Shown piece by piece: positions 1,818 through 55,585 of a stretch of 64,000 nt of DNA. The stretch is taken from NCBI RefSeq assembly GCF_000746825.1, contig NZ_JQIV01000006.1, positions 372,001 to 436,000 on the forward strand, read 5' to 3'. This stretch comes from Carnobacterium inhibens subsp. inhibens DSM 13024 (GTDB taxonomy: Bacteria > Bacillota > Bacilli > Lactobacillales > Carnobacteriaceae). Within the stretch, counting starts at the first letter, position 1, and the number at the start of each line of letters is the position of its first letter. Below the pieces are notes generated by a model. It did not search any database. It saw nothing but the letters and a program-made list of their open reading frames with translations, and was not told the DNA's origin. The position numbers and the translations under genes were made by a program.

Positions 1818-2029
1818 TAGAAGTTCACTACTTTCTTAATTACGAAAACGCAATCAATTATAAAATATATGTACTATTTGATTATAGCAATGTTACACTT
1901 TAATATGCAATTAAATCCTTATATTCATCAACTTTTTTTAGAATGAGAAAAAAAGTAAGCAAGGATTAAACTTTCTGTCCTTGACAATGTTTAGACTTTC
2001 TTGTAATCTTACATTATTATATCAATCAC

Positions 2030-2260
2030 CCAATGAAAGAAAAAGTAAGTAATTCTAGCGTGTGAATAGAGAGGGTTTCCTTAGGCTGAAAGAAATCCCC
2101 GTAGACTTAACTGAAAGACATTCTGGAGGGTTAGCAGTGAAAAGCTGCTACGTTACGAGCGTTAATCGTTGAGGAAAACTTAGGTTTTCAAACAAAGGTG
2201 GTACCACGTATAATGAACAGTCATTCGTCCTTATTCTATTTAGAATAAGGGCGTTTTTTT
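2030..2260 (+). promoter_or_regulatory. T-box riboswitch leader of hisS-aspS, probable Asp (GAC) specifier
   Basis: tRNA-sensing leader. The T-box core AAAGGTGGTACCACG lies at 2194-2208, followed by a terminator stem at 2226-2237/2242-2253 with a T run. A possible -35 TTGACA is at 1981-1986, but the -10 (TAATCT at 2004) is poor. The block TGAAAGACATTCTGGAG at 2112-2128 matches the glyQS leader of this window except at the specifier second base: GAC at 2117-2119 here, GGC there. I therefore read the specifier as Asp, although the first gene is hisS; aspS is second in the operon. The 490-bp gap before hisS contains nothing else that I recognise. Confidence 0.88.
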
Positions 2261-13665: not shown

Positions 13666-14169
13666 ATGAATGAACAATTTCAAGAAGCACTAACATTGAG
13701 AAAAAAATCAAATTATGAAGAGTCAAAAAATTTGTTTTTAAACTTAGTAAAAAAAATCCTGATCATGCTTCTATCAACTATCAATGTGCTTGGAGTTATG
13801 ACCTATTGGGAGAAGAAAAAAAAGCTGTTCCATTCTACGAACAGTCGATTAAATTAGGATTAGTTGGTGAAGATCTAGAGGGCGCTTATGTTGGTCTTGG
13901 AAGTACTTATCGCACTCTAGGGGGAATACAAAAAAGCTAAGTAAATATTGTTAGAGGGGATAGAAAAACATCCAAGTAATGAAGCTATGAAAGTATTTTT
14001 ATCAATGACGCTTTACAATCTAAAAGAACACAAAAAAGCAACAGAACTATTATTGACTATATTGTTAGATACTAAAAAAAATGAAAATATTATTATGTAT
14101 AGAAAAGCCATTGAACTTTATAGTGCAAACTTAGACACTGTATGGGATAAAGATAATATAGATATATAA
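13666..14169 (+). pseudogene. Tetratricopeptide-repeat protein, broken by two frameshifts and a stop
   Basis: Reading across three lesions gives one TPR-like protein of about 167 residues. It starts MNEQFQEALTLRKKSNYEES and continues NPDHASINYQCAWSYDLLGE, AVPFYEQSIKLGL and YVGLGSTYRTLG, then KHPSNEAMKVFLSMTLYNLK and the C-terminus. Lesions: one A missing in the A run at about 13749-13756; one G extra in the run 13920-13924; and an in-frame TAA at 13942-13944. The frameshifts restore each other, but the stop remains. AGAAGGGGTG is a good binding site before the ATG. Function unknown. With three lesions it is probably dead, unless the homopolymer shifts are sequencing errors. Confidence 0.8.
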
Positions 14170-14430
14170 TTTTTTTGTTAAATTCGTTTATGTTTTATGT
14201 TTAATCTCTAAGTAAATGAAATTGTATAAAATCAAGTGACAAGAATCCTATTACATTAGAGTTGTTTTTTATAGAGGGCTCTAATACACAATTATGAGGT
14301 ATGCTAAACAAATTCGCGTATCGCTTTTGTGATAGGAAGGGGATTTTATAGTAACCACGAATGTCAGACTTTTTTTGGAGTGGAGAAAACCACTTCTTTT
14401 TTTGTACACTATTATCCGCAAAGAACCTAT

Positions 14431-14575
14431 CGTTCTAAGCGATGTTTTCAGATGTTTCACGATAGTCGATGGACTTAACCAATGAGTTTCTGCTTGATTC
14501 TTTTGTAATTGTAATAGTCGATAAAGGGAATGAGTGTCCGTCCTATTTCTTCATAGCTATGAAAAACTTATTCAT
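14431..14575 (-). mobile_element. IS3-family transposase (OrfB) C-terminal remnant
   Basis: Read on the minus strand from 14558 the frame gives SYEEIGRTLIPFIDYYNYKR, then IKQKLIG, then a stop. Restoring one missing T there continues as LSPSTIVKHLKTSLRT. The pattern F-I-D/H-Y-Y-N-x-K-R-I-x-x-K-L-x-G-L-S-P is the conserved end of IS3/IS150-group integrases. Upstream codons are interrupted by a stop and the rest of the transposase is absent. It is a dead fragment beside the broken TPR gene. Confidence 0.75.
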
Positions 14576-14602
14576 AATCTAATTATTAATTCAAAAATAG
14601 TG

Positions 14603-14830
14603 AGAGTGGGACAAAAAGCGTTTAGACCCGAATCACTGGAACGAATAAGCGCAGTATGGTCATCGACCATCGAGCATAAGCACTGTAGGCTAACGCCTAA
14701 GTGTATCATGTCTGTACGTAGCTGAAGCTACTACAGTCATGACAAAGTGGACGTCGGGTTTGCTTTTTGGAGCACGTTTTAGAATAAACATTCGTATATA
14801 AAGAAGTGGCTGGGATTTTTGTATCAGCCT
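14603..14830. repeat. Structured intergenic element of consecutive hairpins inside an outer inverted repeat
   Basis: The outer arms AAAAGC...ACCCGA (about 14615-14631) and TCGGGTTTGCTTTT (about 14754-14767) pair. Inside lie ATGGTC/GACCAT (14656-14670, 3-nt loop) and CACTGTAGGC-TAAC-GCCTAAGTG (14681-14703). A long imperfect hairpin at 14706-14742 has GTAGC-TGAA-GCTAC at its tip. It starts with GAGAGTGGGACAAAAAG and ends with GTGGCTGGGATTTTTG. It codes for nothing evident. It resembles a dispersed intergenic repeat or MITE, or a structured RNA; only one copy lies in this window. Confidence 0.6.
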
Positions 14831-15120
14831 CTTAAAAATTATACAGCCGTTTATTCCGGAAGAAAATTCATTTGAATACCAACACTATATAACAAATATC
14901 TCTATTTACTTATGAAAATAGTAGATTCCTTATAGATTGATTTAGTTATATTAAAGAAGAAGTATGTGTTAGAGATTAAGATTTAAACACTCTTTTAACT
15001 TCCATTTTACCAGTTTTCCTTTTTTTAATTGGTTTTCTATCTAAAGAAGGAAAGCTTCATTTTATACGAAAAATGTGCTATTCTTTAAAGTATAGAAAGA
15101 TAAAGGAGAGTGTTGTTTGT

Positions 15121-21540: not shown

Positions 21541-21750
21541 ATAACCAGCGATGAAAGAAAAAAGTAAAGACTTTACCTCTATAGGAGCGAATTTGGGATA
21601 GTGTGAGCCAAATATAGACAAAGTTTTGAAAGGCATTCTGGAGCTGTTCGATAAAAGAGATGCTAGTTTTTATTAAACTAGAATTAGGGTGGAACCGCGA
21701 TTGTACTATCGTCCCTATGCTGACACACTTGTTAGCATAGGGATTTTTTT
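21541..21750 (+). promoter_or_regulatory. Glycine T-box riboswitch leader of glyQS
   Basis: T-box core AGGGTGGAACCGCG at 21686-21699. A terminator follows: CCCTATGCTGACA (21713-21725) with TGTTAGCATAGGG (21730-21742), one G-T pair, plus a T run. The probable specifier GGC (Gly) is at 21632-21634 in TGAAAGGCATTCTGGAG, matching the first downstream gene. Confidence 0.93.
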
Positions 21751-55500: not shown

Positions 55501-55522
55501 CGCACCCTTTGGGTGTACAAAA

Positions 55523-55581
55523 AGAACCCCAATCTGCTATGGTTAAAGTGACTAAACTAAACCATAGCAGATTGGGGTTCT
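55523..55581 (+). promoter_or_regulatory. 22-bp hairpin covering the transposase translation start region
   Basis: Arms 55523-55544 and 55560-55581 (core CCCCAATCTGCTATGG) are exact complements with a 15-nt loop. The right arm holds the only G-rich binding site candidate (TTGGGG), five bases before the ATG at 55586. Transcripts entering from outside would fold and block it. Confidence 0.7.
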
Positions 55582-55585
55582 CTCA

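What the first reader, a model, noticed from the sequence alone, without database searches (positions are those of the whole stretch)
14603..14830. Multi-hairpin intergenic element with outer inverted repeat
Three successive well-formed hairpins (3-4-nt loops) are enclosed by a pairing outer arm, with a GAGAGTGGGACAAAAAG start and GTGGCTGGGATTTTTG end. Such tidy structure in 200 bp of non-coding DNA suggests a dispersed repeat family (BOX/MITE-like) or an undescribed structured RNA.
Basis: partly seen in the sequence, partly recalled or inferred. Interest (0 to 1): 0.5.

Follow-up and report, generated by a model that had tools for sequence, protein, structure and literature searches.

The report
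Mobile hairpin repeat occupying transcription terminators
A modular, strongly folded repeat scattered through the genomes of lactic-acid-type bacteria sits at the ends of genes, often in the place where related species keep an ordinary transcription stop signal, so it may spread by taking over stop signals.

Summary
The hairpins are real (fold z -4.71). The element (14602-14831) is one of about 20 dispersed copies or pieces in this genome. It is modular: ends A and E enclose core C, with optional hairpin modules B and D; this copy is A-C-D-E. A covariance model finds the fold in 80 of 395 genomes of the order (30 of 80 genera). Of 398 genomes drawn from the class, two matched, both of the same order. 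Covariation is very strong: 37 of 38 pairs change on both sides. No Rfam family matches. Of 74 copies, 4 lie between divergent genes. At 11 of 14 sites comparable with relatives, at least one relative has a terminator-like hairpin at the junction; at 9 of these the element genome shows no second hairpin beside it. Best reading: a BOX-like, non-autonomous mobile element that replaces terminator hairpins and supplies a substitute. Termination, the mobilising enzyme and any role of the conserved fold are inferred. It resembles pneumococcal BOX in kind; a published E. faecalis family (Efa-1) may be a relative, but I could not test it.

The parts
14602..14831 (+). whole element, module order A-C-D-E plus terminal hairpin
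   Evidence: ends set by alignment with copies of this genome; CM match 14602-14798, 124.8 bits
14602..14634 (+). module A: conserved left end GAGAGTGGGACAAAAAGCGTTTAGACCCGAATC, 5' arms of stems P0, P1 and P2
   Evidence: alignments A1-A3
14606..14608 (+). P0 5' arm GTG (pairs 14773-14775 CAC)
   Evidence: helix 1, 96.3% of cells paired
14612..14619 (+). P1 5' arm (pairs 14762-14769)
   Evidence: helix 2, all 8 pairs with changes on both sides
14624..14631 (+). P2 5' arm (pairs 14754-14761)
   Evidence: helix 3, all 8 pairs with changes on both sides
14635..14677 (+). module C with the ATGGTC/GACCAT hairpin (14656-14670)
14678..14744 (+). optional module D: two hairpins (about 14681-14703 and 14706-14742); the short-form copies have about 8 nt here instead
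   Evidence: D is also in a copy of family f6, L140
14745..14798 (+). module E: 3' arms of P2, P1 and P0, conserved GGAGCACGTTTTAGAAT and small hairpin 14782-14793
14806..14831 (+). terminal hairpin, intrinsic-terminator-like; mismatched in this copy and not scored as a terminator by either scan
   Evidence: sequence; well paired in other copies

Best explanation
The element is a non-autonomous, BOX-like mobile repeat of Lactobacillales. It spreads by replacing the stem-loop of intrinsic (often two-way) transcription terminators, often leaving the flanking A- or T-tracts. Its own terminal hairpin in one direction, and its long stem in the other, then stop transcription of the adjacent genes, so the insertion costs little. 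Shown: dispersal, copies with identical scores at different sites, modular make-up, covarying fold, gene-end location, and orthologous sites with an ordinary hairpin where the element stands. Inferred: that the element terminates transcription, that an unidentified enzyme or recombination process acting on hairpins moves it, and that the + strand fold is what is recognised or used.
For: Copies: 39 BLAST pieces at E<=1, which I group into 22 places; 19 CM matches at E<=0.01. Recent spread: in G009 all 8 scored candidates (the cap) have the same score, 167.8 bits, at different gene ends. Empty sites: 14 sites, 46 site-relative pairs. In 31 of 46 the best hairpin near the junction is rarely matched by shuffles (p<=0.03, 60 shuffles) and is centred within 25 nt of the junction, covering 11 of 14 sites (recounted, which counts 32 and 12 because it includes L151, itself a relic of the element; alignments). 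In the element genomes 19 of 24 sites have no second hairpin at p<0.05 in the 70 nt on either side. Context: 30 convergent, 38 tandem, 4 divergent and 2 flagged inside an ORF, of 74; in the window's gene pairs with gaps >=60 nt 4 convergent, 17 tandem, 5 divergent of 26. Fold: 93.6% of cells paired against 69.4% shuffled and 30-47% slid. G-U against A-C cells 94:38, leaning to the + strand.
Against: Termination is untested. Elements lie at gene 3' ends, where relatives are expected to have a terminator nearby anyway, so the case for replacement rests on the missing second hairpin, and no random gene-end control was run. Only 11 of 24 junctions have both three A's on the left and three T's on the right (left 16, right 13; L002 has neither). 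The window copy has a mismatched terminal hairpin and lies about 430 nt beyond the nearest upstream ORF end (14169), and its site could not be compared. At L080, L045 and L044 no native hairpin was found at the junction. L042 and L038 have a possible second hairpin in a flank, as do L044, L109 and L110. No target duplication and no enzyme were identified. Terminators differ between element-free relatives at some sites (L088: L144 versus L145-L147), so ordinary terminator turnover could explain part of it.
Confidence: 0.55

Rival explanations
1. Ordinary MITE/BOX-type element that inserts beside terminators; gene ends are simply tolerated sites, and the redundant native terminator is lost later.
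For: BOX, RUP and SPRITE are also over-represented between convergent genes (PMC3049150, passages). The element has inverted-repeat-like ends (14 of 16 letters, read from the sequence).
Against: The compared G009 copies, which look recent, lack the native hairpin that relatives have (L111, L088, L107). No direct repeat longer than 1 nt at 24 junctions.
Confidence: 0.25
2. A structured RNA with its own job (3'-UTR-derived small RNA, protein decoy or mRNA stabiliser), kept by host selection and copied by recombination.
For: Covariation across the order; G-U bias; conserved motifs CACTGGARCGAA...TTCGTGAAGTG.
Against: Patchy presence among close relatives (10 of 18 genomes of the family by BLAST; 12 of 18 by CM); 0 to 76 matches per genome in 20 genomes searched deeply; both orientations relative to the adjacent gene; tandem arrays.
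Confidence: 0.2
3. Transposase-free spread: hairpin-for-hairpin swapping by recombination or template switching between A-tract/stem/T-tract terminators (a mechanism that could also underlie the best explanation).
For: A or T runs at many junctions and no target duplication.
Against: Any shared homology is only a few nucleotides and is missing at some junctions; the common ends of the copies fit an enzyme better.
Confidence: 0.25

Closest known systems
BOX elements of Streptococcus pneumoniae / S. suis (PMC3049150, passages read)
   Same: modular (end modules plus optional internal modules; alternative end pairs in S. suis), over-represented between convergent genes, predicted to fold when transcribed
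   Different: no BOX sequence or model was compared here; this element has a terminator-like terminal hairpin and often stands where relatives have a terminator
SPRITE (S. [quoted passage not shown] PMC3049150, passages read)
   Same: terminator-like repeat, most strongly enriched between convergent genes
   Different: SPRITE is described as an 18-bp duplex plus a U-rich tract; this is an element of about 170-280 bp with several stems
Efa-1 of Enterococcus faecalis (PMC2267715, passages read)
   Same: 163 bp, listed with 65(18) copies, type I (read as intergenic), a pair of adjacent stem-loops: similar size and layout
REP/BIME elements with RAYT transposases (recalled; PMC2817692 seen only in search listings)
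   Same: palindromic repeats outside genes
   Different: much shorter; RAYT genes were not searched for here

Membership tests
MITE | short, dispersed, little coding capacity | tested here: met
   230 bp; the only ORF of 60 aa or more listed over it is a 63-aa frame, 14534-14725; dispersed
MITE | terminal inverted repeats | tested here: inconclusive
   GAGAGTGGGACAAAAA against GAGGCTGGGACAAAAA, 14 of 16, but the right copy is half of the terminal hairpin; end motif 26 forward / 24 reverse in the genome against a control of 7/7, the element's own copies included
MITE | target-site duplication | tested here: not met
   longest direct repeat at 24 junctions is 1 nt
MITE | related autonomous transposon in the host | tested here: inconclusive
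   end-motif hits read by eye over 350-400 nt at ten places; no transposon recognised, no protein or ORF search done
MITE | AT-rich | tested here: not met
   G+C 0.443 against 0.361 for the window
BOX (Streptococcus) | modular organisation with end modules and optional inner modules | tested here: met
   analogy only: A-(B)-C-(D)-E
BOX (Streptococcus) | boxA/boxB/boxC sequences | not tested
   no BOX sequence or model was compared
Intrinsic terminator | G+C-rich hairpin followed by T-tract at a gene 3' end | tested here: inconclusive
   27 of 46 copies of family f1 score in the + direction by my own scan; the window copy does not
Efa-1 | sequence of the E. faecalis family | not testable with these tools
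Known Rfam RNA family | score at or above the gathering threshold | tested here: not met
   window and 20 loci with copies; the hits reported there lie elsewhere

The most novel reading that the evidence does not exclude
A family of mobile elements spread through an order, conserved as a single-strand fold, that moves by exchanging one hairpin for another: an enzyme or repair process recognises a terminator stem-loop and swaps it for the element without target duplication, making terminators a renewable niche for a mobile element.
Probability: 0.3. Interest if true: 0.85.

Novelty: new variant of a known kind. Interest (0 to 1): 0.6.

Why it matters
If the replacement reading holds, a selfish repeat has found a low-cost niche: it removes a gene's stop signal and supplies its own. 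That would help explain how such repeats reach up to 76 copies in compact genomes. It gives a testable route by which 3' ends of bacterial genes are rewired in an order that includes food, gut and pathogenic species. The covariance model could annotate many gene ends that are now blank.

Tried and rejected
Chance hairpins: rejected. Known RNA family: no Rfam match at the element. tRNA/tmRNA: none. Phage cargo: no match for two queries in phages and none for two exact patterns in viral contigs. Plasmids: one 592-kb Aerococcus tenax record and three Pediococcus damnosus plasmids; a query from G162 of family f8 found none. Autonomous transposon with the same ends: none recognised by eye; no protein-family search was run. 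Replication-strand bias: looked at by eye only, no claim. Kink-turn and integron attC resemblance: considered from memory, dropped. Literature: ten searches plus passages of a MITE review (PMC10969869); I found no description of this family, but only openly licensed papers are held, and the letter-string search listed 25 of 131 papers, none recognisably on this subject.

Weak points: L126, L138 and L141 were left out of A3 (L126 because one search showed the wrong strand), and 15 of the 36 rows of A2 were not used in A3. L250 was lost (left end not found). L109 had no usable ortholog on its right side; L110, L032 and the window site had no match on both sides that I could use; L084 was left out of the query. 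In one search the typed query is 3116 letters and the right flank of L080 is cut short. One search scored 2 and one search scored 8 candidates per genome, so their copy numbers are lower bounds. A4 is fitted to the model and holds two weak reverse-strand matches that overlap stronger ones (L105, L193). The hairpin score and shuffles are my own, single-base shuffles.

Full report
OBSERVATION. The element runs from 14602 to 14831. Rfam has no match to it.

A DISPERSED MODULAR REPEAT. BLAST of 14600-14836 against the genome gives 39 pieces at E<=1, which I group into 22 places, some of them short or weak; the covariance model later gave 19 matches at E<=0.01. Reading the copies shows modules: A (left end), optional B (about 52 nt), C, optional D (two hairpins), and E with a terminal hairpin. 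The short form, about 171 bp, is A-C-E. The window copy is A-C-D-E. Copies in relatives L101, L103 and L055 and one piece in this genome (L049) carry the same core or left part inside quite different outer arms, which recalls the alternative end pairs of S. suis BOX elements (PMC3049150, passages read).

DISTRIBUTION. The short form matches 6 of 6 genomes of the genus and 10 of 18 of the family. A BLAST query from another genus finds 29 of 395 genomes of the order. The covariance model R1 finds 80 of 395 genomes, 30 of 80 genera, at E<=1e-4, with weaker scores in the more distant families. Of 20 hit genomes searched more deeply, 19 match at E<=1e-5, with up to 76 matches, several as tandem arrays. 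Of 398 genomes drawn from the whole class, two match, the window's own and one of the same order; the answer does not say how many of the 398 lie outside the order. Other named carriers are Aerococcus tenax and Pediococcus damnosus.

CONSERVED FOLD. On 36 sequences from families f1, f4 and f6 (A3), a structure I wrote from the folds has 93.5% of cells paired and 20 of 38 pairs changed on both sides, against a shuffle mean of 7.1 (0 of 500) and 4-9 for slid versions. On 79 distinct model-aligned sequences from more families (A4), 37 of 38 pairs show changes on both sides and 93.6% of cells pair, against 69.4% shuffled and 30-47% slid. A4 is fitted to the model, which leans towards the structure. 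G-U cells outnumber A-C cells on the + strand, 42 to 23 in A3 and 94 to 38 in A4; this points to a single strand, RNA or DNA, read as written. Cells are not independent.

WHERE IT SITS. Of 74 copies examined with a simple ORF caller, 30 lie between convergent genes, 38 between genes in the same direction (20 of them with the gene reading into the element from its right side), 4 between divergent genes, and 2 were flagged inside an ORF. In the window's gene pairs with gaps of at least 60 nt the figures are 4 convergent, 17 tandem and 5 divergent of 26 (Fisher p 0.017 for convergent and 0.053 for divergent, with 72 copies). A second baseline from the held loci gives 10 convergent, 30 tandem and 6 divergent of 46 (p 0.029 and 0.19). 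So the excess between convergent genes is supported, the shortage between divergent ones only weakly. Both orientations occur.

EMPTY SITES. Flanks of six G009 copies and of twelve G000 copies, the window's included (L032 in both), were searched in relatives of the same genus. Orthologous stretches were fetched and aligned. Fourteen sites could be compared, giving 46 site-relative pairs. In 31 of 46 the best hairpin near the junction is rarely matched by shuffles (p<=0.03) and is centred within 25 nt of the junction; these cover 11 of 14 sites (recount). L151, itself a relic of the element, fits too but is left out; two of the 31 (L174, L176) have a relic of the element beside the hairpin. The cases I find clear by eye are L111, L088 and L107 in G009 and L036, L033, L002, L035, L039, L042 and L031 in G000. 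In the element-bearing genomes 19 of 24 sites have no second hairpin at p<0.05 in the 70 nt on either side; L038, L042, L044, L109 and L110 have one (L250 failed). Nine of the 11 sites with a native hairpin in a relative are among the 19. The junctions show three A's on the left in 16, three T's on the right in 13, and both in 11 of 24; the longest direct repeat is 1 nt. At L080 the hairpins of three relatives lie 43-76 nt away and the fourth holds a relic; L045 and L044 show none at p<=0.03. Because gene ends have terminators anyway, the telling part is the missing second hairpin; a random gene-end control was not run.

HOW IT MOST LIKELY WORKS. The simplest account is a non-autonomous mobile repeat that exchanges its long folded body for the stem-loop of an intrinsic terminator and then takes over the stop function. 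In the + direction the terminal hairpin plus a T-tract would act; in the other direction the long stem next to the left A-tract (a T-tract on the other strand) would. My terminator scan scores 27 of 46 copies in the + direction. The window copy, mismatched in its terminal hairpin, does not score and may be decaying. The enzyme is unknown. Insertion beside a terminator with later loss of the native hairpin remains the main rival.

KNOWN OR NEW. In kind it is closest to BOX: modular, structured, over-represented between convergent genes. SPRITE is terminator-like but smaller. The 163-bp Efa-1 family of E. faecalis, listed with 65(18) copies and two adjacent stem-loops (PMC2267715, passages read), may be a member; I could not compare sequences. 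Two features usually named for MITEs were tested and not met: target duplication and AT-richness. Ten literature searches (listed in Tried and rejected) did not turn up this family, its spread through the order, or terminator replacement; the library holds only openly licensed papers.

Noticed in passing
window 2024-2235 and 21542-21719, + strand: Two T-box leaders above the Rfam gathering score.
   Followed up: no
window 55515-55584, - strand: Match to RF02847 (Ref64, Enterococcus sRNA 64), 47 bits.
   Followed up: no
L039:715-863 and L092:1514-1662: A second short repeat, two near-identical copies in opposite orientation, whose ends GAGGCTGGGACAAAA resemble the element's right end.
   Followed up: partly
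L101, L103, L055, L049, L280, L283: A larger repeat whose left arm holds GAGGAATAGG and, where seen, whose right arm holds CTATTCCAG or similar; in some copies it frames the same core, in L280 and L283 something else.
   Followed up: partly
L216, L234, L236 and G103/G117 places: Head-to-tail arrays of related hairpin units, about 120 or 230 nt apart, in genomes of family f4.
   Followed up: no
L149: In G012 the site orthologous to L107 holds a different large repeat that appears to contain the D module in reverse, ahead of a terminator-like hairpin (read by eye).
   Followed up: no
window 14377-14396: A terminator-like hairpin with a T-run lies upstream of the element in the long gap after the 13948-14169 ORF; the ORFs at 13666-13857 and 13948-14169 may be pieces of one broken gene (a guess by eye).
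   Followed up: no
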